This document shows positions 601-13,304 of a stretch of 64,000 bases of DNA, in pieces. This DNA is from Streptomyces sp. NBC_00224 (GTDB taxonomy: Bacteria; Actinomycetota; Actinomycetes; Streptomycetales; Streptomycetaceae): positions 1 through 64,000 of the forward strand of contig NZ_CP108106.1 of NCBI RefSeq assembly GCF_041435195.1, given 5' to 3'. A program made the position numbers and the translations under genes. Each line of letters starts with the position of its first letter. Position 1 is the first letter of the stretch. Under the pieces are notes generated by a model, which had not been told where the DNA came from, searched no databases, and was given only the letters and a program-made list of their open reading frames with translations.

Positions 601-602
601 AG

Positions 603-662
603 GGGGGTTCCCCCAAGAAGCAAGACACACTATTATATGAAGTCCTGGGGGAGGCGACCCCC
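603..662 (+). promoter_or_regulatory. Regulon promoter P1 with leader hairpin
   Basis: TTCCCC at 608-613 is separated by 17 bp from TATTAT at 631-636, which is preceded by ACACAC. A G-run/C-run palindrome (603-614) overlaps the -35 box. GGGGG (647-651) and CCCCC (658-662) form a leader hairpin before the gene at 694. Same architecture as P2-P7. Confidence 0.65.
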
Positions 663-693
663 TGGGCCGCAGAAGTCCATCGAAGGGGAAGAC

Positions 694-1065
694 GTGGAGA
701 TCAAGATCTCTGACGGAATCGTCCGCCGGGTGAAGGGCGGTACGGATGCTCCGATGACCGGCCCGGCCATTCAGGCCCGCACGATCGCGAACTTCCTGCC
801 CCTGATCTGCCAGCGGGCAGGAGCGAGCATCGTGCACAACGCCGACGCGAATTACACCGGAATTCGGTTCGAAACCACGGCGGGTGCGGTCGTGCTCGAA
901 ATGCCGACCGGCGACCGTCCCTACCGGCTCGTTCACCAGCTGCCGGAGCCCGACGCCATTGGGCGCACCGAAGTGGAGATGCGGCGGTTCCCGCAGATCT
1001 ACAAGCCGCGTGGGGTCGCGCACATTACGGCTGAATTCCTCACCTCTCGCGGGTTCCTGAAGTAG
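694..1065 (+). CDS. Plasmid protein of unknown function
   Basis: A 123-residue protein that I do not recognise. The GTG start at 694 is chosen because GAAGGGGA (682-689) sits at ribosome-binding distance; the in-frame ATG at 637 directly follows the -10 box of promoter P1 and cannot be in the mRNA. The protein is soluble and mixed alpha/beta, with no signal peptide, membrane segment or cysteine cluster. It is the first gene of the plus-strand plasmid block and is driven by P1, so it probably belongs to the same regulon as the DUF932 and ParB-like genes. Confidence 0.7.
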   Translation: MEIKISDGIVRRVKGGTDAPMTGPAIQARTIANFLPLICQRAGASIVHNADANYTGIRFETTAGAVVLEMPTGDRPYRLVHQLPEPDAIGRTEVEMRRFPQIYKPRGVAHITAEFLTSRGFLK

Positions 1066-1078
1066 GCGCAAGCATTCT

Positions 1079-1119
1079 CCCCCGGGGTTTGGAAGACCTT
1101 GCTGTTCGAGCCCCGGGGG
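1079..1119. other. Intergenic hairpin
   Basis: CCCCCGGGG (1079-1087) pairs perfectly with CCCCGGGGG (1111-1119) across a 23-base loop, between two genes. It could be a weak terminator or a processing site. The right arm also sits in a smaller palindrome, GAGCCCC/GGGGCTC. Confidence 0.4.
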
Positions 1120-1153
1120 GCTCCACGCACCGTGATCGGAAAGGGGACTGATC

Positions 1154-1519
1154 ATGAAGCTCGTGTCGTGTGTGACCGGCGAGGAAATCCCGGCGGGCCG
1201 GACCCTTCGTGGACAGGCGGGGGCGGCGGCCGGACAGGCGTGGAAGTTCGAGCGGATCTCTCAGCGGGCCGATGGGACCCACCACGTCCACGTGTCGCGC
1301 CCTGGGGGGAAGTTGGGGCGGATCCATCGTGAGTTCCATCCGAGTGCTCTGGGGTGTGAGATCGCGGTGGACATCACGTGGCGCAAGAGCATGGGGCACG
1401 CGGCCTACCGGACGTGGTCCAAGGTCGACGACTACCTGTTGGCGGGGATCTTCGCGCTGGTTCCGCTGGCGTTCTTCGAGCATTACCACTGGTCGGAGTT
1501 CATCGTCTCCATCTTCTGA
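1154..1519 (+). CDS. Unknown protein with one C-terminal membrane segment
   Basis: A 121-residue protein starting at ATG 1154 after GGAAAGGGG. Its first ~90 residues are hydrophilic, with a conspicuous basic, histidine-containing middle (DGTHHVHVSR, GRIHREFHP). Residues ~93-109 (LLAGIFALVPLAFFEHY) form a single hydrophobic stretch, so it is probably anchored in the membrane by its C-terminal end. No family recognised. It lies between two other unknown genes, with no separate P-type promoter, and is likely co-transcribed from P1. Confidence 0.6.
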   Translation: MKLVSCVTGEEIPAGRTLRGQAGAAAGQAWKFERISQRADGTHHVHVSRPGGKLGRIHREFHPSALGCEIAVDITWRKSMGHAAYRTWSKVDDYLLAGIFALVPLAFFEHYHWSEFIVSIF

Positions 1520-1596
1520 CCGGTCAGCCACCACGGCGGAGTGGGGCCCGGAACGATTTCGCCTTTCCGGGCTCCCTGTTGGAGGGAAGAGGGATC

Positions 1597-2121
1597 ATGG
1601 AAGAGAGCCAGGTGATCGACCGCACCGGCGAGCCGGTGACGCAGGACGAGGCCGAGCAGGCTGAGCACGCACTACGGGAGTGGGCGCGCAGCCGGGGTGT
1701 TCCGGGGACGCTGCGGGTGCCGTTGGAGCAGTTCGACGCGATCCTGCCGCTTTTCGTGCTCGGTTGGGCGTCGGCAGTGCGTACGGGGCACACCGCCCCG
1801 GCAGTGGCGGGTGTCCCGGTCGACCAGGAGAGCGTACGGCGTGCCTTCCGGCGGCTGAGGTCGGGGCGGGTGGGTGTTCGGCAGTCCGAAGGGCCCACGC
1901 TGTGGCAGCAGGTGGACTATCACGGCAGCGTGAGGCGTTGTCACGGCACGTACTGGGTGTGCGCGATCCACACGTACGCAGACCCGTACGGAGGTGTGCC
2001 GGAGTTGCGGTACGACCTGTGCGAGGAGGTCGATGTACTCGGGGGTGTGCCCGTGCCGGTGGTGGGGTCGGTGCGTCGTTCGAGCTTGACGCCATTGCCC
2101 GTTCACCGCATCCCGGTCTGA
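1597..2121 (+). CDS. Unknown plasmid protein, 174 residues
   Basis: ATG 1597 follows GAGGGAAGAGGG, a good ribosome binding site. The soluble product has an N-terminal charged helix (QDEAEQAEHALREWARSRG) and a C-terminal part rich in Val, Tyr and Cys, with no known motif visible. The central pattern VDQESVRRAFRRLRSGRVGV could be a helical DNA-contact region, but that is only an impression. It is the last gene before promoter P2 and ends the first transcription unit of the block. Confidence 0.6.
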   Translation: MEESQVIDRTGEPVTQDEAEQAEHALREWARSRGVPGTLRVPLEQFDAILPLFVLGWASAVRTGHTAPAVAGVPVDQESVRRAFRRLRSGRVGVRQSEGPTLWQQVDYHGSVRRCHGTYWVCAIHTYADPYGGVPELRYDLCEEVDVLGGVPVPVVGSVRRSSLTPLPVHRIPV

Positions 2122-2133
2122 GTGTGCTGGTCA

Positions 2134-2207
2134 GGGGTGGGTTTACCCACCCCTGCAACACACTATTATTGGATTTGTGCGGGGGCCGGTGACCCCGGGC
2201 CCCGCAC
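2134..2207 (+). promoter_or_regulatory. Regulon promoter P2 with operator palindrome and leader hairpin
   Basis: The clearest member of the family. A 9-bp-arm palindrome (2134-2153, GGGGTGGGT-TT-ACCCACCCC) contains the -35 box TTTACC (2142-2147). A 16-bp spacer ends in ACACAC, then TATTAT (2164-2169). The leader forms a stem GTGCGGGG/CCCCGCAC (2177-2207). It drives the DUF932 gene. Confidence 0.8.
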
Positions 2208-2239
2208 CGCAGAAGCCAACACGAAGGGGAGAACACCGC

Positions 2240-3418
2240 ATGACTCAGCAGTTCGCCGAGCGCGCTATGAGCGTGGCTCCCATGGGCGCCCGCAACGCCG
2301 ACACGGGCGATCTGGTCCGGATCCTGGAGGACCAGAACCGGCGCAAGCTGGACGTGATCGTGTCCGGGTCCGCGCTGCGGTTCCGTGAGGGCAACGTTCA
2401 CGTCGACGGCATCGAGTCCCTGATCACCGAGGACGGTGTGACGGACGTCGACGGGATCTACCGGCCCACCGCCGTGGCGGACGAGGGGATCGCGGACAAG
2501 CTCCGCATCCCGCTCGCCTACCTGCGCCGCATGCGTACCGAGAACGTCCCGCTGCTGGACGAGAACGTGAACACGTGGCTGCGTGAGGAGCCGGACCGCC
2601 GTTACATGCTCCGTGCGTTCCGGGGCGACAATGGCCCCGGCATGGCGCCCAGTGAGGGAGTGGCCCGCGCGCTGCTGTCCGACAGCTACAAGCGGATGGA
2701 CAACCTCGACATGCTGCTCGCCGCGCTGGACGGGGTCCAGCAGTCCGGCCACCCGACCCGCATCACCGGCTGCGATCTGACGGACCGGCGCATGTACGTG
2801 CGCGTCGAGTCCGAAGCGGTCGCCGTCCAGGCCCGCGAGTTGCTGCGCGGCTACCGCTCCCCGTTCGACGAGCGCAGTGGTGACCAGCTGCCGGTGGTCT
2901 CGGCCGGTTTCGTGATCACCAACAGTGAGGTCGGTTCCGGGGCGTACACCATCACGCCGCGCGCGGTGATCCAGGTATGCCGCAACGGTCTGACCATGAC
3001 GCAGGACGTGATGCGCGCCGTGCACCTGGGAGGCAAGCAGGACGAAGGCGTCGTGTCCTGGTCCGGCCAGACTCAGCGCAAGACGCTGGAACTGATCACA
3101 TCCAAGACCGCCGACGCCGTGCGCACCTTCCTGTCGCGGGAGTACGTCGAGGCCAAGGTCCGGGGAATGGAGGATGCGGCCGGGAAACCGCTGGCCGAGC
3201 CGACGAAGACGATCGAGCACGTCACCAAGTCGCTCAGCATCGGTGCTGAGGCCAAGGACAGGATCCTTGCCCACTTCATCCGGGGCGGTCAGGTCACGGC
3301 CGGGGGCGTGATGCAGGCCATCACGTCGACCGCACAGACCCTTACCGACGCCGACCAGGCAGCCGCCCTGGAAGCGCTCGCACTGCCCGCGCTCACGGCG
3401 GCCGCCGCCCACGGCTGA
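2240..3418 (+). CDS. DUF932-family plasmid/phage protein
   Basis: A 392-residue protein. ATG 2240 is selected by AAGGGGAGAAC just upstream; an upstream in-frame start would lie in the leader hairpin. The C-terminal half carries the family-like stretch SAGFVITNSEVGSGAYTI followed by RAVIQVCRNGLT, typical of DUF932 proteins, which recur on phages and plasmids and whose biochemical role is unknown to me. No membrane segment or signal. The gene is alone between promoter P2 and a strong terminator-like hairpin (3425-3466), so it is a well-insulated single-gene unit. Confidence 0.8.
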   Translation: MTQQFAERAMSVAPMGARNADTGDLVRILEDQNRRKLDVIVSGSALRFREGNVHVDGIESLITEDGVTDVDGIYRPTAVADEGIADKLRIPLAYLRRMRTENVPLLDENVNTWLREEPDRRYMLRAFRGDNGPGMAPSEGVARALLSDSYKRMDNLDMLLAALDGVQQSGHPTRITGCDLTDRRMYVRVESEAVAVQARELLRGYRSPFDERSGDQLPVVSAGFVITNSEVGSGAYTITPRAVIQVCRNGLTMTQDVMRAVHLGGKQDEGVVSWSGQTQRKTLELITSKTADAVRTFLSREYVEAKVRGMEDAAGKPLAEPTKTIEHVTKSLSIGAEAKDRILAHFIRGGQVTAGGVMQAITSTAQTLTDADQAAALEALALPALTAAAAHG

Positions 3419-3424
3419 CAGACC

Positions 3425-3466
3425 CCCGTGCGGGCCGGGCACCTCCCCCAGCCCGGCCCGCACGGG
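3425..3466 (+). terminator. Strong hairpin terminator after the DUF932 gene
   Basis: A perfect 16-bp stem (3425-3440 with 3451-3466) surrounds a 10-base loop and starts 6 bases after the stop codon. There is no U-tract, as is usual for Streptomyces terminators. Confidence 0.8.
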
Positions 3467-3530
3467 CCTATAGTCCGCCCCGCACCGGTCGGGGCGCCCC
3501 AGGCGTCCGGGCGGGCACCGGCCGGCGCCC

Positions 3531-3622
3531 AGCGCGGAGCGCTCCCCGCCCCTTCCTGAGAGCGCGGAGCGCGCCCCCGTCCCCTGCCGCGTAGCGGCAG
3601 CGCAACCCGTCTGCGGAGCAGA
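3531..3622. repeat. Cluster of four GNA-loop mini-hairpins
   Basis: In the 290-base gap before the next gene there are AGCGC-GGA-GCGCT (3531-3543), GCGC-GGA-GCGC (3562-3572), CTGCCGC-GTA-GCGGCAG (3584-3600) and TCTGC-GGA-GCAGA (3610-3622). All loops read GNA, here on the plus strand, the opposite orientation to the array at 19-152. Nothing else was seen in the gap. Confidence 0.7.
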
Positions 3623-3709
3623 GCGCGCGCCCGGAAGACTCCACCGCCCCACGGGCGCGGCCCACCGCCCCCGGTGCTCACCGCCCGTCCCTTCACAAGG
3701 AGGACCAGC

Positions 3710-4213
3710 ATGCCCGCACGCCCGGAACTCACCCGTCCCGACGACGCCGCCGCGGCGGCCGCAATGGAACGGTCCCTGACCGCGCTCGCCGCTCTGGTTC
3801 TGGCCCTGGGTGACGGCGAACACCAAATCAGTCTCGTGGCCGAACGAACTGACGGGGCGTTCCTGCGGGGTCACGTCGACCTGTCCATCGGCAATCTCTG
3901 CACCGATGACATCCCGGTGCGCCTTGCGGTGCTGGACGACGAAGCCTTCTACGCCCTGCGCATCCTGCTCGTGTTCGCGCTGGAGGGCAGCACCGTCCGC
4001 AGCGCCGTCCTGGTGGCCACCACCGCCGCTGACCCCCGCCCCCTTGCGTGCGGCTGGACCATCGAGAACGGGTGGCTGCACCCCATCGACACGGCCGAGC
4101 TCAAAAAAGCCGTCATCCCCTGCCCCGGCGCTCCCGCCGTGTGGCGAGAGGTCTACGACGCACCGCTCTTGCCCCAGTTCACCGCCTCAGAAGAGGAGGA
4201 GGACCGTGGCTGA
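3710..4213 (+). CDS. Unknown plasmid protein, 167 residues
   Basis: ATG 3710 is preceded by CAAGGAGGA, the best ribosome binding site nearby. The soluble protein has an alanine-rich N-terminal helix and an alpha/beta core (for example HVDLSIGNLCTDDIPVRLAV). It has an acidic tail ending EEEEDRG. No catalytic motif recognised. Its stop overlaps the start of a 37-residue peptide gene at 4206, so the two are probably translationally coupled. No P-type promoter lies directly upstream; transcription may begin in the hairpin-rich gap. Confidence 0.6.
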   Translation: MPARPELTRPDDAAAAAAMERSLTALAALVLALGDGEHQISLVAERTDGAFLRGHVDLSIGNLCTDDIPVRLAVLDDEAFYALRILLVFALEGSTVRSAVLVATTAADPRPLACGWTIENGWLHPIDTAELKKAVIPCPGAPAVWREVYDAPLLPQFTASEEEEDRG

Positions 4214-4319
4214 CAGGCCCACCATCACCGTGTACGGCTACCGCACGCGCACCGAGCAGCGCGACGGCATCCGCCGTCGGCGAGCCCAGGCACGCCCCGA
4301 ATCGCGGGAGTCGGTGTGA
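4206..4319 (+). CDS. Small basic peptide, 37 residues
   Basis: A GTG at 4206 behind GAGGAGGA opens a 37-codon gene with a strongly basic, arginine-rich middle (TEQRDGIRRRRAQARPESR). It overlaps the previous gene by 8 bases and the next by 4, a tight arrangement that supports translation. It may be a nucleic-acid-binding peptide; that is inference from charge alone. Confidence 0.5.
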   Translation: MADRPTITVYGYRTRTEQRDGIRRRRAQARPESRESV

Positions 4320-4672: not shown

Positions 4673-4702
4673 ACCGTGCCTCCCTCAAACCCCAGGTCAA
4701 AG

Positions 4703-4764
4703 GCGGGTTCACACCACCCATGACCACACTATTATGAGTGTTATGGGAGGGGGTGTCCCTCCCA
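4703..4764 (+). promoter_or_regulatory. Regulon promoter P3 with leader hairpin
   Basis: TTCACA (4708-4713), a 16-bp spacer ending CCACAC, then TATTAT (4730-4735). A perfect leader stem TGGGAGGG/CCCTCCCA with a 5-base loop spans 4744-4764. Confidence 0.75.
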
Positions 4765-4809
4765 CGCACCGCCCCCTCCGGCACCCCGGAAACGACCGAA
4801 AGGACCGTG

Positions 4810-5052
4810 ATGATCGAGGAGTTCATGTTCACCGCCAATCCCGGTTCGTTCGGGTACCGGGTCCTCGACCGCCACGACCGCAGCACCAGTTATGGAGTCG
4901 TCTGGCGAGATCCCGCCGCATGCAAGTGGGTTGCCGAGTACCCCGCCAGCCATCCGGGCAACGGCGGCGGAATCCCTGGTTTCGCCAGCAGGGAATGGGC
5001 CGCGCGCTTCCTGTACCGCTACCACAAGCCCCGGCCCTCCGGCCGCCCCTGA
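4810..5052 (+). CDS. Small unknown protein, 80 residues
   Basis: ATG 4810 (or GTG 4807) follows GAAAGGACC, downstream of promoter P3 and its leader hairpin. The product is rich in aromatic and basic residues (FTANPGSFGYRVLDRHDRS, REWAARFLYRYHKPR) and lacks cysteines and membrane segments. It is the first gene of a run of four small genes (4810-6261) and is not assignable to a family. Confidence 0.6.
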   Translation: MIEEFMFTANPGSFGYRVLDRHDRSTSYGVVWRDPAACKWVAEYPASHPGNGGGIPGFASREWAARFLYRYHKPRPSGRP

Positions 5053-5098
5053 CCAGCCATCCGTCCGCCCCACCCCGCTGGTGCAGAAGGGACTTGCC

Positions 5099-5392
5099 AT
5101 GGCCACCTTCGGCCACATCACCCCCGAACGCTGCGCCCAGCTCGGCCGCGCTCTCACGTCCGCCGGCCTGTCCTGGCAGGACAACGGCCACCAGGACCGC
5201 CCCGAGTTCCTGACCTACACCGCCACCGACCCCCACGGCCGCCGCTGGACCATCAGCCCGGCCACCAGCAACCAGATCACCCCGTCGAAGCCAGCGAGCC
5301 TGTGGCAGGCGCGATGCGCCGAGAACAGCCACTCCAGCCCCGTCAGTTCCGCCCGGGCCGTCGCCGAGCACATCCGCTACTTGCCCGCATGA
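5099..5392 (+). CDS. Small unknown protein, 97 residues
   Basis: ATG 5099 is preceded by CAGAAGGGAC. The protein has a WQDNGHQDRPEFLTYTATD region and an RRWTISPATSN strand suggestive of a small beta-rich fold; function unknown. Its stop overlaps the start of the zinc-ribbon gene at 5389 (ATGA), so the two are coupled. Confidence 0.6.
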   Translation: MATFGHITPERCAQLGRALTSAGLSWQDNGHQDRPEFLTYTATDPHGRRWTISPATSNQITPSKPASLWQARCAENSHSSPVSSARAVAEHIRYLPA

Positions 5393-5596: not shown

Positions 5597-6261
5597 GTGG
5601 CCTCGCCGCAGAACCTGACCACCCAGTCACAGTTTGACGCGTTCGCCGACGAGGTGGCGCGGGAGTTGGGCACGCATTGCCGCACAGCCCCGCCGCCGGT
5701 ACCGGGAAGGGGTCTGGTCCGCCTCATCGTCGACGGCGACGGCCGCGCCCTGAGTTTGCGCCAGAGCAACCGGCAGCCCGGCCGCCTGACGATCTCTGCG
5801 GCCCTGCCGGACGGGTCCCAGGTGAGTCCGCCGTCGATCGGGGTCACGGCCAGCAGCGCCCGTCATGTGGCGCACGAGATCACCCGGCGGCTCTACCCGC
5901 TGCACACGCAGGCCGTTGAGCGCGCCGGGGAACTCGCCGCTCTCAGGCAGCGGAGAGCGATGCCCGGCGTACCGTCGCTGACGCCGTGGCCGGTGCACTT
6001 CCCGGCGCCGGGGTCACCGAGCGGCATCGGAGCACCAAGATCCTCTGGGAGCACGCGTTCCGCCCGCCCGGGCACAGCGGTCCCGCCTTGCTGGACAGCG
6101 TCTTGGTCGTCATCGGGCCCTCGGGCAAGGAGGTGGGCGTCGACGCGTCCGGCCGCCCCGACTGCATGGTCCCCATGCTGGCGGCGTTCGCCGCAGCCGT
6201 ACGGGCGCGAGACCGCCAGGTCAGTGGCGGGTTCCCCACACCAGAGAACACACTATTATAA
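5597..6261 (+). pseudogene. Unknown gene with a frameshift near 5945-5985
   Basis: From GTG 5597 (GAAGGAGTGAC upstream) a protein-like frame runs to about residue 118 (HEITRRLYPLHTQAVERAGELAA), then turns into low-complexity sequence. The plausible continuation lies in another frame, open from 5920, including ERHRSTKILWEHAFRPPG and SVLVVIGPSGKEVGVDASGR and ending at 6261. That frame has no ribosome binding site of its own. A single-base indel, a recoding event or a sequencing error would join them into about 220 residues. The final stop lies on the -10 box of promoter P4. Confidence 0.5.
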
Positions 6262-6288
6262 CTGTTGCGAGGGGGCGTTCATCCCCCT
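6226..6288 (+). promoter_or_regulatory. Regulon promoter P4 with leader hairpin
   Basis: TTCCCC (6232-6237), a 16-bp spacer ending ACACAC, then TATTAT (6254-6259). AGGGGG/CCCCCT (6270-6288) forms the leader hairpin. An imperfect GTGG/CCAC palindrome flanks the -35 box. Confidence 0.7.
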
Positions 6289-6397
6289 GCGCCGCAGGGC
6301 TGCCGCCGCCCTCATGCGACGCGGGCATGCACAGACCGCCGAATCGCGAGCGCTCCGTCGCCCGTCCTCTCCGCCCGCTTCGAGCCCGGGAGTTGCC

Positions 6398-6745
6398 ATG
6401 CTCCGCGTACTGCGCCGCCTGGTGCGGCCGTCCCACCTGCGCCTGCCCGTCCGTCCCTTCGGTGCCGGAGTCACCGCGCTCCCGCCCACCGCCCGCGAAG
6501 CACTGGGCACCGGTGTCTGCGCCGGGGAGGCCGTGGCCTACAACCGCAGCCGCGTCGCCACCGCGACCGCTCTCACCCTCTATCGCAGCGGCGTCACGCT
6601 GCCGATGCCCGACGGTGAACTGGACACCGCCGTGCACGCCCTGGCCTTCCCCTACTCGGTGCCGAGCCCGCAGACGCGTGCCGCGATCCGTGCCGCCCTC
6701 GCCGTCCTGGAAGCCGACGACACCCTCACCGTGACCACCGACTGA
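6398..6745 (+). CDS. Unknown plasmid protein, 115 residues
   Basis: ATG 6398, preceded by CGGGAGTTGCC, starts a basic N-terminus (LRVLRRLVRPSHLRLPVRP) followed by two helical segments (REALGTGVCAGEAVAYNRSR, TRAAIRAALAVLEADD). It lies 140 bases downstream of P4; the long leader (6289-6397) has no other gene. No family recognised. The basic start and helical body would suit a small DNA-binding protein, but this is inference. Confidence 0.6.
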   Translation: MLRVLRRLVRPSHLRLPVRPFGAGVTALPPTAREALGTGVCAGEAVAYNRSRVATATALTLYRSGVTLPMPDGELDTAVHALAFPYSVPSPQTRAAIRAALAVLEADDTLTVTTD

Positions 6746-6766
6746 CCAGCAGTCGGCCCGCGCCGT

Positions 6767-6791
6767 GGGGCTGCTCTCTTCAGGCAGCCCC
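6767..6791 (+). terminator. Intergenic hairpin
   Basis: GGGGCTGC (6767-6774) and GCAGCCCC (6784-6791) form a perfect 8-bp stem with a 9-base loop, between two genes. Likely a terminator or attenuator. Confidence 0.5.
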
Positions 6792-6810
6792 GCTACGGAA
6801 GGAGACTCCT

Positions 6811-7152
6811 GTGTTCCTCGTGGTACCCGACCCCGCGCACGGACTCGTCGCAGCCCCCCGATGTCCCGATGACCTCACGCCCGACACCGTGGCGATGCTG
6901 ACCGGCGAGGGATTCGTCTGGAACGGCGAGATCGAGGCGTACGCCCGGCCAACCGGCGACGGCCCCGAGGCCGTGGAGCGCACCGCCGGCGCGCTGCGCG
7001 CGCTGGGCCACTTCGTCTACTCCTCCTACACGCCACTGCCCGCCCGCCGAGGACCGCACCACGGCGAGGCCGGGCCGCACACCCCGCTTGTCCGCCCTGT
7101 TGCCGCAGAGGGAGTGCCGCCATGCCCCGACGCCGAGCCCAGCCGCCCGTGA
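6811..7152 (+). CDS. Unknown plasmid protein, 113 residues
   Basis: GTG 6811 follows GGAAGGAGACTCCT. The body contains a segment resembling a small alpha/beta domain (EGFVWNGEIEAYARPTGDGP, GALRALGHFVYSSY), and the C-terminal ~30 residues are proline- and histidine-rich. The last 31 bases overlap the next gene in another frame. No motif identifies a function. Confidence 0.55.
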   Translation: MFLVVPDPAHGLVAAPRCPDDLTPDTVAMLTGEGFVWNGEIEAYARPTGDGPEAVERTAGALRALGHFVYSSYTPLPARRGPHHGEAGPHTPLVRPVAAEGVPPCPDAEPSRP

Positions 7153-7808
7153 GGTACACCGTGGCGGAGCACGGGGGAGTCCACGAGGTCGTGGACACGC
7201 TGCACGGGTACGCGCTCAGCAGCCACGCCACCCGCCCGGCAGCGGAGGCCGCTGCGCGGGAGGTGGCTTCCAGTCCGACGGCCGCCGTCGCGGCCGTGGA
7301 GGCGCTCGACATGGCTCAGAGCGGTCCGGCGGCCGCCGAGCGGCGGATTCTGCGCCGGTACGGGTATGCCTGGAGCCTGCGCCGGGACGAAATGCTGTCC
7401 CTGACGCGGGAGTCCAGCCACCGCCGCCTGGAAGCGCTCGTCCGCGACGGTCATCTGGCCATGGTGTTCAGTCCTGCCTGCCAGCCGTTCTCCACCACAC
7501 CCGAGCGCTTCGGCCAGTTGTCGCCCCGCTGGGTGCGCGACGCGGACGTGTCCTTCCCGGTCGCCGACCTTGCCCGTCTGGAGCGTGAGCGCCCTGCGCT
7601 CAAAGCCCTGCCCGAGCGGGCGTGCTGGGAGCCGTGCGAGCTGCACGGTATCGTGCTGCGGCGGTGTCTGCTGTGCGGGCCGCGCGAGGCCTTCGAGTGC
7701 CGGTGGGGCGAGTGCACCGCCAACCGCATCACCGCCTACTGCGAGCGGTGCGCACGGATCGACCCCCGGCGCAGCTTCCCTCTCCCGCCCTATCCGGACC
7801 GCGAATAG
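7122..7808 (+). CDS. Unknown protein with cysteine-rich C-terminus
   Basis: 228 residues from ATG 7122 (GAGGGAG upstream). The N-terminal third resembles a small fold around YTVAEHGGVHEVVDTLHGYA. A helical middle follows. The C-terminal ~60 residues hold eight cysteines (CWEPCELHG, LRRCLLCGP, FECRWGECTANR, YCERCAR), consistent with two zinc-binding ribbons. It overlaps the upstream gene by 31 bases and ends just before promoter P5. Probably a nucleic-acid or protein adaptor; not assigned. Confidence 0.6.
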   Translation: MPRRRAQPPVRYTVAEHGGVHEVVDTLHGYALSSHATRPAAEAAAREVASSPTAAVAAVEALDMAQSGPAAAERRILRRYGYAWSLRRDEMLSLTRESSHRRLEALVRDGHLAMVFSPACQPFSTTPERFGQLSPRWVRDADVSFPVADLARLERERPALKALPERACWEPCELHGIVLRRCLLCGPREAFECRWGECTANRITAYCERCARIDPRRSFPLPPYPDRE

Positions 7809-7820
7809 CGGCAGCTCAGA

Positions 7821-7912
7821 GGTGGGTTCACACCCCCAAAATACACACTATTATTTTATGTAGTGAGGGTGCGGGCGCACGGACGGCAGGACCGTCCGCC
7901 GCGGCCGCACCC
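7821..7912 (+). promoter_or_regulatory. Regulon promoter P5 with double leader hairpin
   Basis: GGTGGG overlaps TTCACA (7827-7832); a 16-bp spacer ends ACACAC, then TATTAT (7849-7854). The leader has an outer stem GGGTGCGG/CCGCACCC (7867-7912) enclosing an inner stem CGGACGG/CCGTCCG (7880-7898), the most elaborate of the family. Confidence 0.8.
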
Positions 7913-7929
7913 CAGGAAGGACACCGCCC

Positions 7930-8421
7930 GTGAAGCCCGCAGAACTGGACGAACTCCTGACCGCACCGGCCGAGCCGCCCATGCGCGACGCGCTGCGCCG
8001 CCTCTCACCCAGGGCTCTGGACGCGCTGATCGTCGAAGCCCTCTTCGCCGCCGAGGAGGGGTGGCGGCAGGTCGTGGTCGACCGCGTCATGGCGCTCGCT
8101 GCCCAGCAGCCCGATCAGGGCCGCCCAGTGATCGCCGCCTACATCACAGCGACGGAGCAGCGCACGCCGGAAGGCATGTGCGTCGGCTGGAGCCCGCGCA
8201 TCGCGGCATTCGCCAGCACCGACGAGGCCCCCGACCTCACGCACAGCACGACCACGGTGACGTTCGTACCGGCGGGCGGGGAGTCCCTGGCCGAAGAGGC
8301 GGACGCCGATGCGGAGTTGGCTGAGGCGCTCAGACGGCTGGCGGCCCTGGACCCGCCCGGACACGAGGACGTCCTGCACGTCTACCTGCCCGCCCGGCTG
8401 GTCACCCACCTCAAACCCTGA
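7930..8421 (+). CDS. Unknown plasmid protein, 163 residues
   Basis: GTG 7930 behind CAGGAAGGAC starts a mostly helical acidic protein. Residues 1-60 look like a three-helix bundle (PAELDELLTAPAEPPMRDAL, LDALIVEALFAAEEGWRQVV); the C-terminal part has an acidic helix (SLAEEADADAELAEALRRLA). No catalytic signature. It is the single gene between promoter P5 and the hairpin at 8431-8457. Confidence 0.65.
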   Translation: MKPAELDELLTAPAEPPMRDALRRLSPRALDALIVEALFAAEEGWRQVVVDRVMALAAQQPDQGRPVIAAYITATEQRTPEGMCVGWSPRIAAFASTDEAPDLTHSTTTVTFVPAGGESLAEEADADAELAEALRRLAALDPPGHEDVLHVYLPARLVTHLKP

Positions 8422-8430: not shown

Positions 8431-8457
8431 CGTGCGGGCGCTTCATGCGCCCGCACG
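8431..8457 (+). terminator. Hairpin terminator
   Basis: A perfect 11-bp stem CGTGCGGGCGC/GCGCCCGCACG with a 5-base loop begins 9 bases after the stop of the upstream gene. Confidence 0.75.
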
Positions 8458-8487
8458 CCGCGCCTTGCCGGTTCCCCTACCCGGCCG

Positions 8488-8766: not shown

Positions 8767-8808
8767 GTCCGAGGGCGGCAGGCAAATGCGGGATCCCCGC
8801 AGGTCAGC

Positions 8809-8871
8809 GGGTATCTACCCCTTTCAGACTCTCACACTATTATTTTATTAGTGATGCGGGTTGACCCCCGC
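8809..8871 (+). promoter_or_regulatory. Regulon promoter P6 upstream of the ParB-like gene
   Basis: GGGTA-TC-TACCC (8809-8820) contains a TCTACC-type -35; an 18-bp spacer ends TCACAC, then TATTAT (8838-8843). GCGGG-TTGACC-CCCGC (8856-8871) forms the leader hairpin and repeats the GGG-TTGACC-CC operator-like core seen at the -35 box of P7. Confidence 0.75.
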
Positions 8872-8906
8872 CGATACGCCGACGCGGCACGCAGAAGGAG
8901 CACCCC

Positions 8907-10379
8907 ATGGCTACCGCCGTCCTGACCCCCACCAACCCCACCAAAGAGCACGTCGAACACGAGGAAGACGTCCGGCAGTTCGTCCTCCTCGACCCGGCGC
9001 TGCTGGTGCGTGACGAGTGCAACGCGCGCGAGACCGACACCGAGCCGGACGACAAGCTCATCGCCTCGGTCAAGGAACTCGGCGTGGAAGAGCCCGTCAG
9101 CGTCCGGCCCCGGCCCGACGGGACCTACAGCGTCTTCAAGGGCTGGCGGCGCGCCCAGGCCGCGCAGGCCGCCAATGCGACCGCCGCACAGGACACCCGC
9201 CCCGCCCGCCCCATCAGGGCCTACGTACGCGAGGACCTGGTCGGCCGCGACGGCTGGACGCGGTTCCTGTCCCTGGTGGAGAACGACCACCGCGAGGGCA
9301 TGAGCGAGCGTGACACCCTGCGGGCCCAGGAACTCTCCCTGATCGACATGAGCGAGGTGGACCAGCGCCGGGCCACCAAGGCCCTGCGCGTCAGCCGTAA
9401 CGCCGTCCGGCAGGCCAAGGTCGCCCAAGCACTCAACGACGCGACCCTGCGCCGTACGGCGGCCGCAGGCATGGACCTGGAGCAGACCGCCCAGCTCGCC
9501 GAGGTCGAACCCGTGCGCGGCGCGGAGAACCGGCTGATGCGGGCACTCCAGCGCGACCAGGACGAGGGGGGCGGCGGTCGCGGCCACTGGGACCAGGAGG
9601 TGGCGCTGCTGCGCGCCGAGCAGGCCGACGCCCAGACCCGCGCCAAGGCCGAGGAGGAGCTCAAGGAGGCCAACATCCCGCTGCTGGGCCGGGTGCCGTC
9701 CTACGAGAAAGACCCCTCGCGCCCCCTGGCGGAGCTCACCACCGGGCTGGGCAACCCGCTCACCGAGGACAACCACCGCAACTGCCCCGGCCACAGCGCC
9801 CGCCTGGACGACGAGCACCGGCCCGTGTGGCACTGCGCCGACCCGGCCGCCTACGGCCACAAAGTCCGCCCGCAGCCCAAGAAACCCCGGACCGAGGCGG
9901 ACGAGCACAAGGCCGAGGAACGCCGCAGGGTCATCTCGTGCAACCGGGCGTGGAAGGCCGCCGCCGGGCCGCGTCAGCAGTTCATCACCCGGCTCGTGCG
10001 CATGAAGGCCCTGCCGGACGCGGCCCGGGTGTTCGCCCAGAACATCCTGCTCACCCTCCCCGGCTTCTACAGCTCCTGGGCCGACAAACGGGAGACCGAG
10101 ACCGTCGCACGCTTCCTGGGAGTCAAGGAGCCCAAGGCCGACCTCGCCGAGACGGCGGTGCACCTGCCCAAGGCACGCCTGGTGAACGCTGTGTTCGCCC
10201 ACGTCGCGGCGGCGTGCGAGTACGACATCCGCGAGCCCAAGGCATGGTCGTCCCTCACCGCACCCCAGGCCCGCTACCTGCTGCTCCTGGAATCCCTCGG
10301 TCAGGCCGACAACGGCAGCTACCAGCTCTCCGAGGTCGAGCAGCAGGCCCTCACCAGCCACCGGACCGCCGCCGCCTGA
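8907..10379 (+). CDS. ParB/RepB-like DNA-binding protein
   Basis: 490 residues from ATG 8907 (AGAAGGAGCACCCC upstream). Residues ~30-110 form a ParB-like N-terminal domain: NARETDTEPDDKLIASVKEL, then EPVSVRPRPDGTYSVFKGWR with RRAQAAQAA, the counterpart of the GERRxRAA motif. Helices at ~150-175 (DQRRATKALRVSRNAVRQAK) resemble the ParB helix-turn-helix. The ~300-residue C-terminal extension is charged and family-specific. ParB proteins bind centromere-like sites and partition replicons; no ParA lies nearby, so a regulatory or nuclease-like role is equally possible. It is a single-gene unit driven by P6. Confidence 0.75.
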   Translation: MATAVLTPTNPTKEHVEHEEDVRQFVLLDPALLVRDECNARETDTEPDDKLIASVKELGVEEPVSVRPRPDGTYSVFKGWRRAQAAQAANATAAQDTRPARPIRAYVREDLVGRDGWTRFLSLVENDHREGMSERDTLRAQELSLIDMSEVDQRRATKALRVSRNAVRQAKVAQALNDATLRRTAAAGMDLEQTAQLAEVEPVRGAENRLMRALQRDQDEGGGGRGHWDQEVALLRAEQADAQTRAKAEEELKEANIPLLGRVPSYEKDPSRPLAELTTGLGNPLTEDNHRNCPGHSARLDDEHRPVWHCADPAAYGHKVRPQPKKPRTEADEHKAEERRRVISCNRAWKAAAGPRQQFITRLVRMKALPDAARVFAQNILLTLPGFYSSWADKRETETVARFLGVKEPKADLAETAVHLPKARLVNAVFAHVAAACEYDIREPKAWSSLTAPQARYLLLLESLGQADNGSYQLSEVEQQALTSHRTAAA

Positions 10380-10408
10380 CCATCCGCCCCTCCCCCTCAC
10401 CACCCCTG

Positions 10409-10435
10409 CGGCCGGGCACGGCCCGTGCCCGGCCG
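10409..10435 (+). terminator. Hairpin after the ParB-like gene
   Basis: A perfect 12-bp stem with a 3-base loop (arms CGGCCGGGCACG and CGTGCCCGGCCG), 30 bases after the stop codon. Confidence 0.65.
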
Positions 10436-10468
10436 GTCGTCCACCTCCGCACAGAGAGGCGAACCAGC

Positions 10469-10843
10469 ATGCCCCCCACGATCGACGACGTCCGTACCTT
10501 CATCGGACAGCTGCCCGACGCCGCAGCCGTCGCACAAGTCCAGGAAGCCGCCGCACAGCGACTCCGCGCCATCGACAAGGCCGCCTTCGCCCGCATCCAG
10601 TCGGGGCGCCGCGCCCGCATCACCCCCGCACTGCGCTCCAAGCTGCTGCGCGGCAAGACGGGCACCGTGCAGGAACGCAACCGCACCGGCACCCGGGCCG
10701 GTTTCCTGCTCGACGAGGAATCCACCCGGCAACTGCGCGCCGACCCGCGCAACAGCCACTACCGCGTCCCCGAGAACGTCCGGCGCTTCCGTCTGCCCGG
10801 CAGCGGCGTCCCGCTCTCCTGTCTGGAACTGACCGAGAGCTGA
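10469..10843 (+). CDS. Unknown plasmid protein, 124 residues
   Basis: ATG 10469 with AGAGAGGCGAACC upstream. An all-helical N-terminal half (IDDVRTFIGQLPDAAAVAQV, AAAQRLRAIDKAAFARIQ) is followed by a basic region (RRARITPALRSKLLRGKTG). A tail contains NSHYRVPENVRRFRLPGSGV. The basic helical character suggests nucleic-acid binding, by inference. It is bracketed by hairpins on both sides and may be a small independent unit or a read-through partner of the ParB-like gene. Confidence 0.6.
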   Translation: MPPTIDDVRTFIGQLPDAAAVAQVQEAAAQRLRAIDKAAFARIQSGRRARITPALRSKLLRGKTGTVQERNRTGTRAGFLLDEESTRQLRADPRNSHYRVPENVRRFRLPGSGVPLSCLELTES

Positions 10844-10850
10844 CCCCCGG

Positions 10851-10882
10851 GCCTGCGTCGCGCCGCCCGGCGCGACGCAGGC
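10851..10882 (+). terminator. Hairpin terminator
   Basis: A perfect 14-bp stem (10851-10864 with 10869-10882) and a 4-base loop start 8 bases after the stop codon. Confidence 0.75.
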
Positions 10883-10948
10883 GCCACCCCGTCCCCACTC
10901 CCCAGCCGGGCGTCCCCGCCACCCGGCCCGCGCCCGAAAGAGGCAGCC

Positions 10949-11278
10949 ATGAGCGACTCCCCGCAGGCGGCATCCCCGGTGGACGCCGACGCCCGCGACC
11001 AACCCCTCACCCTGGCCGTGCTGCGCCAGCTGCTCCGCAACGACTGGCGCCGCCTGCCCGGCAGCACGCTCGTGGTGCTCTCCGGCGACGCCGAGGGCAA
11101 CACTTTCTCGCCGTTGGCCAGCTACAGCCACTCCCGGTACGCGCCGACCCTGAGCGGCCTGGTCGGCGACGTCTTCCGCCTGCCCGAGCAGCTGGCCAAG
11201 GACCCGGAACTGCGCGAGCTGTTCCCCACCGTCCCCGACAGCGCCGTGCGGGCCCTCGTGCTCTTCCCGCTCGGCTGA
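10949..11278 (+). CDS. Unknown plasmid protein, 109 residues
   Basis: ATG 10949 follows GAAAGAGGCAGCC. The protein has an alpha/beta appearance: LTLAVLRQLLRNDWRRLPG, then STLVVLSGDAEGNTFSPLAS, then a leucine-rich C-terminus (ELFPTVPDSAVRALVLFPLG). No known motif. It sits between two hairpins and has no recognisable P-type promoter. Confidence 0.6.
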   Translation: MSDSPQAASPVDADARDQPLTLAVLRQLLRNDWRRLPGSTLVVLSGDAEGNTFSPLASYSHSRYAPTLSGLVGDVFRLPEQLAKDPELRELFPTVPDSAVRALVLFPLG

Positions 11279-11293
11279 CCGACCCCCGCACGC

Positions 11294-11322
11294 GGCGGGG
11301 CAGCCCGCCCGGCTGTCCCGCC
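11294..11322 (+). terminator. Intergenic hairpin
   Basis: GGCGGGGCAGCC (11294-11305) pairs with GGCTGTCCCGCC (11311-11322) with one G-T pair and a 5-base loop, just after the preceding gene. Confidence 0.55.
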
Positions 11323-11350
11323 CTCTCACAAAATCGACGGGTCACCTGCC

Positions 11351-11770
11351 ATGTCCGCTCCCGCACACGCTGCCCCGGACCCGCCCCGCCAGCCGGTGCT
11401 GATCATCAGCGACCGACTCGACCACGACCCCATCGGCCTGCTGCCCTGCCCCGTCCCCCTGCACCACTCACCGTCCGCCGTGTTCACCCGCGAGGCCTAC
11501 CACAAAGCCCCCCTCGTCATCCTGGACGATCGCAGCTACCCCCACTTCTTGCTCCGCCACATGCCCCACCGCCCCGGCCTGATCCTGGCCGCCACCGACC
11601 CCGACGACGCCACCGCCTATCCCCGGGCCGCCGCCATCGCCGCCGAAGCCGTCCTGCACGCCGGACAACCTCTCGGCTGGCTGCACCTGCGCCTGCACAC
11701 CGCCACCGACTTCCGCCACGCCCACTGGGACACCCTGCTCACCACCCCTCCCCCACCACAGAGCAGTTGA
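11351..11770 (+). CDS. Unknown plasmid protein, 139 residues
   Basis: ATG 11351 opens a histidine- and proline-rich soluble protein. Strand-helix patterns such as PVLIISDRLDHDPIGLLP, APLVILDDRSYPHFLLRH and RPGLILAATDPDDATAYPRA suggest a small Rossmann-like alpha/beta fold without a recognised nucleotide motif. No cysteine cluster or membrane segment. It is followed by two more unknown genes in the same direction. Confidence 0.6.
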   Translation: MSAPAHAAPDPPRQPVLIISDRLDHDPIGLLPCPVPLHHSPSAVFTREAYHKAPLVILDDRSYPHFLLRHMPHRPGLILAATDPDDATAYPRAAAIAAEAVLHAGQPLGWLHLRLHTATDFRHAHWDTLLTTPPPPQSS

Positions 11771-11826
11771 AGCGACGCCACGGGCCAGGCGCGCAACCCC
11801 ATCCCCGCGATTCGAAGGAGCCAGTG

Positions 11827-12441
11827 ATGCCACCGGTCCCCCAACGCTGTGCACGTCGACCGCTGGCCGGCGGGCTGGTCGTGCCCTGGGTGTCCCTGAT
11901 CCATAACGGCCACGCGGCGTTCGGGAGTCTCGACGCCGAGCGGGCCCGTGCCGCCTTCCTGCACTGCCTGTGCCAGATCTGTGGCCAGTCACTCAACGAG
12001 CGGTGCTTCGTGATCGTGCGCCCCGCCGACGTGGCCCAGGGCCATTGCCCGGAACCCGCGCTGCACCCCGAGTGCCTTCCGTACACCGCCGCGCACTGCC
12101 CCATGCTCAACGGCACCGCCACCCGCTACCGCCAGCGTCCCGTCCTGGCCAGCCACGCGGCCGGACGGCCCTGCACCGATCCGGCCTGCCCCTGCCCCTC
12201 CCTCGCCCCCGACCACGGCGACGCCGCCCGCAACGGCCAACCGGCCGACCGCTACGAGGCCTGGATGATCCACACCCACACCTACCGCCTGGTCTTCCCG
12301 CCCGGCCAGATCGACGCGCCCTCGGGCATCAGCCTCGACGTACCCGTCCTGCGCACCCGCGTCCTGCGCACCGCCCCGCTCACGGCCGAACAGGAGCGTC
12401 TGATGGCGCTGGTGCACGACCTCCTGGACGGCACACCGTGA
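11827..12441 (+). CDS. Unknown cysteine/histidine-rich protein
   Basis: 204 residues from ATG 11827 (CGAAGGAGCCAGTG upstream). The middle carries CLCQICGQSLNERCFVIV, CPEPALHPECLPYTAAHC and CTDPACPCPSLAPDHG, enough cysteine and histidine for two zinc sites. The C-terminal third is a beta-type region (HTHTYRLVFPPGQIDAP). The pattern resembles treble-clef or ribbon adaptors rather than an enzyme. It is one of several zinc-ribbon-like proteins in the window. Confidence 0.6.
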   Translation: MPPVPQRCARRPLAGGLVVPWVSLIHNGHAAFGSLDAERARAAFLHCLCQICGQSLNERCFVIVRPADVAQGHCPEPALHPECLPYTAAHCPMLNGTATRYRQRPVLASHAAGRPCTDPACPCPSLAPDHGDAARNGQPADRYEAWMIHTHTYRLVFPPGQIDAPSGISLDVPVLRTRVLRTAPLTAEQERLMALVHDLLDGTP

Positions 12442-12482
12442 CCCTTCCCTCCCTGACCATCCCTTCCCAAAGGAGCCTTTCC

Positions 12483-13235
12483 ATGATCACGCCTGACCCG
12501 GCCACGCCCGAGGGCGCGGCCGTCATCGACCTGCACGAGCAGATGACCGCGCTCCACGAGCGCGCGGGCGAGTGGCCCGGCGCCGACACCGTCGGCATCC
12601 TCGACGCGTGGCTGGCGGGGTTCGACTTCACCAGCCCGCCCGCGCCGTCGCGCACCATCGTCGGCAGCGCCTGGGCGCCGCACCGCGAGGACCGGAACGG
12701 GCAGGAGGTGACGCTGTGGGCCGACGAGAACTCCGCGCTGGCCTGCCTGGCGCAGCGTGTGCGCAGCAACTGGGACAACGTGGCCGGGGACGACCGCATC
12801 CCGCACTGCCCGCCGATCAGCGACCGTGCGGCCGTCCGCCTGCACTACGGGCCGCGGGCACAACGAGCAGATGAGCGCTACTCGTTGTACGCCGACGACA
12901 TCGAACTGCCGCTACCGGCTGTCTCCGGCCCCGACGGCTTCCGCTTCCCGGGCGAAGAGATGTGTGCCGAGGCCAACAGTGCGGCCGTCTTCCACCCGAT
13001 GACGGACCGCGCCGACGAGGGCCTGCCCTGCCTTGAGGTCGCCAAAGTCCTGGTCTTCGCGTACCTGGACGCGGACCGCCGTGCTATGCGGGTCTCGGTG
13101 CATCTCGATGCCGCTGACGAGTTGATCGTCCAGCCCAGCGGCACGGTTGCCCTGCTGGTCGAGGTCGGGGACTCCACCGTGTTCTGCGGCGGTGCCGCGC
13201 CGACACACGCAGTTCCACCACGGTTGCGGCGATGA
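12483..13235 (+). CDS. Unknown plasmid protein, 250 residues
   Basis: ATG 12483 follows AAAGGAGCCTTTCC. A soluble acidic protein with regions GSAWAPHREDRNGQEVTLWA and YSLYADDIELPLPAVSGPDG and a Val-rich C-terminal part. I see no motif that names a family. It is the last gene of the 10949-13235 stretch and ends 40 bases before promoter P7. Confidence 0.6.
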   Translation: MITPDPATPEGAAVIDLHEQMTALHERAGEWPGADTVGILDAWLAGFDFTSPPAPSRTIVGSAWAPHREDRNGQEVTLWADENSALACLAQRVRSNWDNVAGDDRIPHCPPISDRAAVRLHYGPRAQRADERYSLYADDIELPLPAVSGPDGFRFPGEEMCAEANSAAVFHPMTDRADEGLPCLEVAKVLVFAYLDADRRAMRVSVHLDAADELIVQPSGTVALLVEVGDSTVFCGGAAPTHAVPPRLRR

Positions 13236-13270
13236 CTGCGGCGGCTGGTCCGGCGAGGAGGGCCGGCCAA

Positions 13271-13304
13271 GGGGGATTGACCCCATCCCAACTCACACAA
13301 TTAT
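13271..13304 (+). promoter_or_regulatory. Regulon promoter P7 upstream of ssb
   Basis: GGGGG-ATTGA-CCCC contains the best -35 of the family, TTGACC (13277-13282). A 16-bp spacer ends TCACAC and the -10 is AATTAT (13299-13304). GGAGGTG, the ribosome binding site, follows closely, so the leader is short and lacks the hairpin of P1-P6. Confidence 0.75.

What the first reader, a model, noticed from the sequence alone, without database searches (positions are those of the whole stretch)
603..13304. One promoter type repeated seven times: a plasmid-wide regulon
At 608, 2142, 4708, 6232, 7827, 8814 and 13277 a TTNACC-like box, a 16-18 bp spacer ending in CACAC and TATTAT/AATTAT recur ahead of different genes. 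Most -35 boxes lie inside G-run/C-run palindromes (best: GGGGTGGGT-TT-ACCCACCCC). Fixed spacing and a palindrome over the -35 suggest one repressor or one alternative sigma factor controlling about 25 unrecognised genes, including DUF932, ParB-like and ssb. This is the strongest candidate for an undescribed co-regulated system.
Basis: partly seen in the sequence, partly recalled or inferred. Interest (0 to 1): 0.85.

Follow-up and report, generated by a model that had tools for sequence, protein, structure and literature searches.

The report
Shared promoters at Streptomyces replicon ends
Seven near-identical promoters lie in the first 13 kb beside the end of a linear Streptomyces chromosome, ahead of a gene block that also sits at the ends of related linear plasmids, where related blocks carry their own versions of the promoter, as if one hidden regulator read them all and perhaps switched on helper genes when the DNA enters a new cell.

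Summary
CACACTATTAT with at most one mismatch occurs 14 times in the 9.18-Mb genome: the seven sites and their mirror images in the other terminal inverted repeat. So here the regulon is subtelomeric and chromosomal, not plasmid-wide. The same promoter family precedes orthologous genes at ends of linear Streptomyces plasmids; in six whole records 28 of 28 sites lie within 20 kb of an end and point inward. Blocks commonly carry gene A, DUF932, ParB-like and SSB genes, often DNA methylases. The -35 and upstream part is shared between elements; the four bases upstream of CTATTAT are alike within an end and differ between ends (0.815 vs 0.51, 0 of 2000 permutations), though some ends are mixed. 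Some relatives use another -10 context in the same layout. A leader hairpin with compensatory changes and 12-bp iterons complete the anatomy. Best reading: an establishment (leading-region-like) regulon of linear replicons, housekeeping-type promoters under a block-encoded factor, probably a repressor. Induction on entry and the factor were not shown. The -35 palindrome is not general. New variant of a known kind.

The parts
576..605 (+). 12-bp iteron array (CAGGGGATAACG, 2.5 copies) directly upstream of the first promoter
   Evidence: TRF; period-12 signal before the first promoter in 13 of 13 ends scanned, out of 19 held
605..636 (+). promoter 1 (-35 TTCCCC 608-613, -10 TATTAT 631-636), gene A class
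644..667 (+). leader hairpin 1 (CCTGGGGG..CCCCCTGG)
   Evidence: direct reading, RNA fold
694..1065 (+). gene A, 123 aa, no known family; starts within 1.3 kb of an end in 13 of 13 plasmid records matched
   Evidence: AlphaFold model of low confidence
1597..2121 (+). gene B, 174 aa, unknown, usually the second gene of the block
2134..2153 (.). palindrome GGGGTGGGTTTACCCACCCC over the -35 of promoter 2
   Evidence: 2 places in the genome, one per terminal repeat
2139..2169 (+). promoter 2 (-35 TTTACC 2142-2147, -10 2164-2169)
2177..2207 (+). leader hairpin 2, with compensatory changes across orthologues
   Evidence: 180 of 195 pairs; permutation maximum 175
2240..3418 (+). DUF932-type protein, 392 aa
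   Evidence: orthologues annotated DUF932; phrog_1362 E 1.7e-93; no Pfam hit of its own
3710..4213 (+). conserved unknown protein (14 of 19 ends)
4705..4735 (+). promoter 3 (-35 TTCACA 4708, -10 4730-4735)
4745..4763 (+). leader hairpin 3
4810..5392 (+). small unknown genes behind promoter 3 (4810-5052, 5099-5392)
6229..6259 (+). promoter 4 (-35 TTCCCC 6232, -10 6254-6259)
6267..6291 (+). leader hairpin 4 (not in the RNA minimum-energy fold)
   Evidence: direct reading, DNA fold
6398..7808 (+). unknown genes behind promoter 4 (6398-6745, 6811-7152, 7161-7808)
7824..7854 (+). promoter 5 (-35 TTCACA 7827, -10 7849-7854)
7864..7914 (+). leader hairpin 5 (long)
7930..8421 (+). unknown gene, 163 aa
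8812..8843 (+). promoter 6 (ParB class, TATCTACC; -10 8838-8843)
8856..8871 (+). leader hairpin 6 (GCGGGTTGACCCCCGC; not in the RNA minimum-energy fold)
   Evidence: direct reading, DNA fold
8907..10379 (+). ParB-like protein, 490 aa, with a helix-turn-helix read by eye; the only family found in 18 of 19 ends; candidate trans factor
   Evidence: TIGR00180 E 6.7e-12 and PF02195 E 1.6e-5, both below their curated cut-offs
10469..13235 (+). conserved unknown genes downstream of the parB-like gene (10469-10843, 10949-11278, 11351-11770, 11827-12441, 12483-13235)
13274..13304 (+). promoter 7 (-35 TTGACC 13277, -10 AATTAT 13299-13304); short leader without hairpin
13327..13890 (+). ssb; contains a run of 22 C at 13832-13853, true end uncertain
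   Evidence: PF00436 E 7.1e-14
14312..16970 (+). PAPS-reductase-like gene (14312-15535) and C5 DNA methyltransferase (15555-16970), likely end of the block

Best explanation
The block is the establishment (leading-region-like) regulon of a family of linear Streptomyces replicons. Its genes lie next to the telomere and read inward, so they could be the first genes to enter a recipient if transfer is end-first. Each operon has a promoter of housekeeping-sigma type (TTNACN-like, 16-17 bp, mostly TANNNT) with a shared upstream element (AGGTCA..GGGTTCAC). One factor, encoded inside the block, reads the -10 region. It most likely represses the promoters in a resident cell and is missing in a new recipient, giving a burst of SSB, DUF932, ParB-like and methyltransferase expression. 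Specificity for the bases flanking the -10 has diverged between element families, so blocks are insulated from one another. A 5' leader hairpin probably stabilises or regulates the mRNA. Shown here: promoter motif, location, orientation, conservation, concerted flank change, leader covariation. Inferred: transcription itself, the factor, repression, induction on entry, mRNA effect.
For: Motif confined to the two terminal repeats of the 9.18-Mb genome. In six whole plasmid records (2.13 Mb), 28 of 28 CACTATTAT sites lie within 20 kb of an end and point inward; reversed control 1. The pattern alone found 17 Streptomyces loci (14 contigs) and 17 of 17 encode block proteins. Gene A starts within 1.3 kb of an end in 13 of 13 records. 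Flank: within-end 0.815 vs between-end 0.51, 0 of 2000 permutations, while the upstream block shows no such effect (0.584 vs 0.595); the same with four ends not used for training (0.817 vs 0.356) and with one end per group (0.821 vs 0.429). Relatives with another -10 context keep the layout: GTATTATGGAA 13 of 13 hits inward in three plasmids, reversed control 2; ATCTAGTATCGAA 9 of 9 on one strand; 18 of 18 on one strand in a circular plasmid whose block holds ArdC-like, N6-methylase and ParB genes. Related ends hold ssb, N6 and C5 methylases, DUF3560 and DprA genes. Transfer-type genes in the window: VirB4/TcpF-like (below its curated cut-off), NlpC/P60, Replic_Relax. Leader covariation 180 of 195 pairs, 0 of 5000 permutations.
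Against: No expression or transfer data. No regulator identified: ParB-like is in 18 of 19 ends, but its recognition helix is not unusually variable (108 of 476 windows are more variable), and L093 and L108, with different flanks, share nearly the same helix. Some ends are mixed (L082, L083, L087), and the 4 nt before the flank (0.477 vs 0.41, 1 of 2000) and the 5 nt after the -10 (0.433 vs 0.363, 0 of 2000) also show a smaller within-end excess. The permutations do not correct for relatedness of ends. The second end of plasmid NZ_CP108236 carries both flank types, so a single factor encoded elsewhere in the plasmid is unlikely; a block-encoded one is not excluded. The dyad around the -10 is weak (mean arm 3.67 vs 3.39, 1 of 1000 permutations). 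The 101 leaders folded are not more stable than the GC-rich background. One ATCTAGTATCGAA copy lies in the middle of its plasmid. Gene A was found in only 1 of 121 Streptomyces genomes, our own.
Confidence: 0.5

Rival explanations
1. A dedicated sigma factor or activator reads the extended -10 region; the sites are not housekeeping promoters.
For: The conserved part is asymmetric and centred on the -10, and the flank just upstream is where sigma contacts an extended -10 (recalled). It changes in concert within an end. One related plasmid, NZ_CP108729, has an annotated RNA polymerase sigma factor gene at 130425-130997, about 3.5 kb upstream of the internal ATCTAGTATCGAA copy, and a WhiB-type gene in its block.
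Against: No sigma-like family among the block proteins scanned with Pfam. No sigma gene is annotated in NZ_CP109573, which has the block on 57 kb. -35, spacing and TANNNT (66 of 72 sites) fit the housekeeping type.
Confidence: 0.2
2. Ordinary constitutive promoters, with -10 flanks alike within an end because the promoters were copied or gene-converted.
For: Promoters within a block resemble each other. The inner part of the second end of NZ_CP108236 keeps its own flank type, with 94-97% identity to NZ_CP108307.
Against: The strong effect is limited to about 4 bases; neighbouring bases show a much smaller one and the upstream block none. Gene-specific promoter classes (gene A, ParB, ssb) are conserved between elements, so the promoters predate the flank changes.
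Confidence: 0.12
3. Single-stranded-DNA promoters (Frpo/ssi type) active on the incoming strand.
For: Some sites fold well as ssDNA: z -6.0 at 2125-2210, -6.5 at 7815-7920, -3.1 at 8795-8875, -2.1 at 4695-4775. Gene content resembles leading regions (PMC11541004, passages read).
Against: -10 and -35 are not in one duplex: at most the first two bases of the -10 are paired in the seven + strand folds. Three of seven sites (590, 6215, 13262) fold about as well as shuffles.
Confidence: 0.08
4. A telomere-maintenance or replication-stress regulon (SSB, ParB-like, iterons) not tied to transfer.
For: Location beside telomeres, and 12-bp iterons at the first promoter. SSB is present.
Against: The same layout stands in a circular plasmid, and related blocks hold DNA methylases and ArdC-like or DprA genes.
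Confidence: 0.15

Closest known systems
Establishment regulon of pLS20-family plasmids, clade II p576 with its repressor (PMC8708921; abstract and sections 12, 20, 21 read)
   Same: Many small operons of establishment genes, each with the same regulatory sequence and a strong promoter; a plasmid-encoded repressor gives transient expression after transfer
   Different: Bacillus plasmids with a ribbon-helix-helix repressor. Here linear Streptomyces replicons, telomere-adjacent, no repressor identified, element-specific -10 flank, leader hairpins, iterons
Leading region with Frpo/ssi promoters, F-type plasmids (PMC11541004; passages read)
   Same: ssb, methyltransferases and uncharacterised genes in one orientation in the first-transferred DNA, under a repeated promoter type
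   Different: Promoters here are not duplex-forming ssDNA hairpins; no oriT shown; location is the telomere. That paper shows one island from Streptomyces sp. DJ in a figure legend; whether it is related was not tested
EGeRS1 sequences of pLS20 clades I, III, IV (PMC8708921, sections 12 and 20)
   Same: A repeated regulatory sequence rich in inverted repeats ahead of establishment operons
   Different: EGeRS1 is 400-600 bp, and the copy studied has no strong sigma-A promoter; here a compact promoter of about 45 bp plus a hairpin
KorB/ParB-type regulators of conjugative plasmids (recalled)
   Same: A ParB-family DNA-binding protein encoded among the controlled genes
   Different: No evidence that the ParB-like protein here binds these promoters

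Membership tests
Establishment/leading-region regulon | Several operons in one cluster and mostly one orientation under the same regulatory sequence | tested here: met
Establishment/leading-region regulon | Gene content: ssb, anti-restriction genes, methyltransferases, unknowns | tested here: met
   ssb and C5 methylase in the window; N6 methylase, ArdC-like, DUF3560, DprA annotated in related blocks. No anti-restriction gene was recognised in the window itself
Establishment/leading-region regulon | Located in the DNA that enters the recipient first | not testable with these tools
   Beside the telomere, but end-first transfer is a recalled model; a search for it found no paper
Establishment/leading-region regulon | Transient expression after entry | not testable with these tools
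   No expression data
Frpo/ssi single-strand promoter | -10 and -35 held in duplex in one folded ssDNA strand | tested here: not met
   -10 unpaired, or in a loop with at most its first two bases paired, in the seven + strand minimum-energy folds
Repressor-controlled promoters of p576 type | A plasmid-encoded repressor with operators at each promoter | tested here: inconclusive
   Element-specific -10 flank implies a reader; weak dyad; no repressor found
Housekeeping-sigma promoter | -35 TTGACN-like, 16-18 bp spacer, -10 TANNNT (consensus recalled) | tested here: met
   Spacing 16-17 bp in 34 of 35 training sites; -10 fits TANNNT in 66 of 72 sites, misfits include the window's AATTAT; the -35 of the ParB class fits poorly

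The most novel reading that the evidence does not exclude
Linear replicon ends of Streptomyces carry an 'immunity-group' code: each block encodes its own regulator, the -10 flanks of its 4-18 promoters co-evolve with that regulator's specificity, and divergence lets an incoming element escape silencing by a resident relative's regulator, as phage immunity groups do. The same layout in a circular plasmid would make it a general entry-gene system of these bacteria.
Probability: 0.35. Interest if true: 0.85.

Novelty: new variant of a known kind. Interest (0 to 1): 0.7.

Why it matters
How linear Streptomyces plasmids and chromosomes establish themselves after conjugation is, to my knowledge, poorly understood. 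This gives a definable set of candidate entry genes, most of them without a recognised family and perhaps including unknown anti-defence functions. It also gives a promoter signature that finds them from DNA alone, and a natural series of diverged promoter specificities with which to find and test the regulator. I found no description of it in the library searched (listings); most subscription papers are not in that library.

Tried and rejected
Plasmid-wide regulon: rejected, since sites stop at 13.3 kb and the contig is 8.91 Mb with terminal repeats. The -35 palindrome as general operator: rejected, as 17 orthologous promoters often break it (windows typed by eye, L099 out of register). Leader energy as evidence: rejected, mean -25.9 vs background -26.5 kcal/mol over 101 leaders, 43% below the background median; only covariation was kept. 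ParB-like as proven reader: not supported. Rfam, E up to 1: one hit, far below its gathering score, at 43-157. Gene A in IMG/VR: 1 pattern match, none confirmed; the 8 IMG/VR loci of the promoter pattern encode no block protein at E 1e-6. The 37 hits outside Streptomyces were not tested and are taken as chance in AT-richer genomes. Structure of gene A: mean pLDDT 54, mixed helix and strand, no conclusion. PDB by sequence: nothing useful for gene A or 10469-10843; one weak ParB match, E 0.0018. Site choice: the matrix was trained on 35 sites of the window, L082-L084, L086 and L087, so similarity among these is biased; one search repeats the test on four ends not used for training, one of which (L099) is a close relative of L087. 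L095 was dropped as a near copy of L094. Gene calls for families came from a simple script of mine. Leader covariation used 15 of the 22 DUF932 leaders printed, arms picked by eye; some changes come from stems of different length; L092, L094, L096, L097, L098 and L100 have other shapes, and L070 was left out by oversight. Period-12 scan took the best 90-nt window per end, which favours period 12; 63 other promoters scanned alike averaged 0.39 (maximum 0.50) against 0.47-0.65, so the ranges touch.
Full report
WHAT IS THERE. All are on the + strand, between 0.6 and 13.3 kb. CACACTATTAT with up to one mismatch occurs at 14 places in the whole 9.18-Mb genome: these seven and their mirror images at 8.899-8.912 Mb; the reversed control has 1. 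The contig is 8,912,376 bases long and its two ends are inverted copies of each other, 99.995% identical over the window and onward to at least 124 kb. The window is therefore the end of a linear chromosome with a long terminal inverted repeat. The genus is taken from the relatives found; the genome itself is unnamed.

THE BLOCK IN OTHER REPLICONS. The region matches 14 Streptomyces plasmid records. The fetched ends of linear plasmids commonly show the same order: telomere, gene A, gene B, DUF932 protein, small unknown genes, ParB-like, more unknowns, ssb, often followed by PAPS-reductase-like or DNA-methylase genes, mostly reading inward. Gene A starts within 1.3 kb of an end in 13 of 13 records. 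In six whole plasmid records, CACTATTAT occurs 28 times, 28 of 28 within 20 kb of an end and pointing inward; the reversed control occurs once. A scan of GTDB species genomes with the promoter pattern alone gave 54 stretches. The 17 from Streptomyces (14 contigs, 14 organisms by title) all encode block proteins; the other 37 were not tested. The block is uncommon in genomes: gene A in 1 of 121 and TCACACTATTAT in 2 of 295, our own genome counted in both.

ANATOMY OF A PROMOTER. Over 35 training sites in six ends the printed consensus is aGGtCaggGGnGGGTTcaC, then about 12 bp, then naCACTATTATT; -35 to -10 spacing is 16 or 17 bp in 34 of 35. Gene-specific classes recur between elements: gene A (CAACAGGGGTTCC), ParB-like (GGGTATCTAGCC), ssb (GGGGGTTGACC, short leader). 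At score 16 or more, 12 ends hold 78 sites. In the 72 sites left after dropping L095, 66 have a -10 of the form TANNNT.

CONCERTED -10 FLANK. The upstream block is no more alike between non-orthologous promoters of one end than between ends (0.584 vs 0.595). The four bases just 5' of CTATTAT are (0.815 vs 0.51; 215 and 2187 pairs; 0 of 2000 label permutations within gene class). Smaller effects exist in the 5 nt after the -10 (0.433 vs 0.363, 0 of 2000), in the 4 nt before the flank (0.477 vs 0.41, 1 of 2000) and in the hexamer (0.929 vs 0.916, 33 of 2000). The result holds for four ends not used in training (0.817 vs 0.356) and with one end per group (0.821 vs 0.429). Examples: window CACAC 7 of 7; L094 TCCAC 6 of 6; L093 ATC before TATTAT 9 of 9; L086 TGCAC 5 of 7; but L082, L083 and L087 are mixed. 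The test does not correct for relatedness of ends. Copying of whole promoters would have carried the neighbouring bases along; selection by one reader explains the pattern better.

OTHER CONTEXTS, SAME LAYOUT. Ends without matrix hits have their own repeated -10 context ahead of the same kinds of genes. GTATTATGGAA: 13 hits in the records of L096-L098, all inward in the first 13 kb, none in five other records; reversed control 2. ATCTAGTATCGAA: 9 hits in one plasmid, one strand, 7 within 16 kb of the end, one at about 25 kb and one in the middle. TGGTAATGTTGTCCTTGTT: 18 hits with up to 3 mismatches in a circular plasmid, all on one strand, 17 of them in about 28 kb that includes ArdC-like, N6-methylase and ParB-like genes. 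L101 and L102 share a TAGAGT context at gene A only, read by eye.

A NATURAL TEST THAT CUTS BOTH WAYS. Plasmid NZ_CP108236 has [GAC]ACAC flanks at one end (8 of 8 sites). Its other end has a 3.4-kb copy of that end, with two such sites, then a stretch 94-97% identical to NZ_CP108307 with flanks TGCAC at 3 of 5 sites (the others TGTAC and TACAC), much as in NZ_CP108307. Flank type thus follows the block. This argues against a reader encoded once elsewhere in the plasmid and fits one encoded in the block, or a recent exchange.

WHO READS IT. Among 438 predicted proteins of 19 ends, only the ParB-like family is in 18; the next is in 14. It has a helix-turn-helix of ParB type by eye, but its recognition helix is not unusually variable, and L093 and L108, with different flanks, have nearly the same helix. 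It remains a candidate only. One related plasmid has an annotated sigma factor gene about 3.5 kb upstream of its internal motif copy and a WhiB-type gene in its block; neither is shared by the other ends seen. Gene A could not be modelled well. A weak dyad joins the flank to bases after the -10 (49 of 92 sites with arms of 4 or more against a permutation mean of 36 and maximum of 49; 1 of 1000 permutations reaches the mean arm).

LEADER HAIRPIN AND ITERONS. A G-run/C-run hairpin can be drawn after six of the seven window promoters, not after ssb; the RNA minimum-energy fold shows it at four (626, 2159, 4725, 7844). For 15 of 22 DUF932 leaders, cognate arms pair at 180 of 195 positions against a permutation mean of 160 and maximum of 175 (5000 permutations), with several compensatory changes. 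Energies are not unusual for this GC content. Upstream of the first promoter, 13 of 13 ends scanned have a period-12 signal of differing sequence (TRF arrays in three of three ends tried).

MECHANISM. Most likely these are housekeeping-sigma promoters held by a block-encoded factor and released when the DNA enters a cell lacking it, as with the p576 repressor (PMC8708921, sections 20 and 21 read). Gene content resembles leading regions (PMC11541004, passages read), and transfer-type genes lie inward in the window and in relatives. Transcription, induction on entry, end-first transfer and the factor are inference. A sigma factor or activator is the main rival. Single-strand promoters of Frpo type are unlikely because the -10 is not held in duplex.

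NOVELTY. Repeated regulatory sequences ahead of establishment operons are known from Bacillus and F-type plasmids. A telomere-adjacent version in linear Streptomyces replicons, with element-specific -10 flanks, was not found in the library searched (listings). Papers on Streptomyces telomeres (PMC8743542), SCP1 partition (PMC13245405) and pIJ101 SpdA2 (PMC4170104) were seen only as passages or abstract and did not describe it there. It is rated a new variant of a known kind.

Noticed in passing
window 13832-13853: Run of 22 C inside ssb, same length in both terminal repeat copies; the reading frame after it is uncertain.
   Followed up: partly
contig ends, left 1-124000 (beyond the window): Terminal inverted repeat of at least 124 kb, nearly identical; its end was not reached.
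   Followed up: partly
window 46752-59317: Conjugation-type gene cluster: VirB4/TcpF-like ATPase, NlpC/P60-SLT protein, Replic_Relax protein, large unknown proteins, in a chromosome end.
   Followed up: partly
window 17142-18028 and 36617-37504: Two copies of a 0.9-kb element, 83% identical, possibly insertion sequences; not examined further.
   Followed up: no
window 576-605; L085 916-984; L096 1097-1149: 12-bp iterons beside the first promoter, element-specific in sequence; possible transfer origin, ParB site or telomere-linked site.
   Followed up: partly
L103/L105 (NZ_CP107769, circular): 17 copies of another promoter in about 28 kb, one strand, plus a 3-mismatch copy at 22733 beside a GntR-type regulator gene.
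   Followed up: partly
L106 (NZ_CP108729 126877, - strand): An exact ATCTAGTATCGAA copy far from the end, ahead of a 116-aa unknown gene and about 3.5 kb from an annotated sigma factor gene: possible site of the regulator.
   Followed up: partly
L108 (NZ_CP108236 right end): Chimeric plasmid end: 3.4 kb copied from the other end, then a block of a different flank type.
   Followed up: yes
L104 (NZ_CP109573): A 57-kb linear plasmid with the block also carries a type III CRISPR gene set.
   Followed up: no
window 107-151: Small palindromes with short loops near the contig start, of telomere type by eye; the class of telomere was not determined.
   Followed up: no
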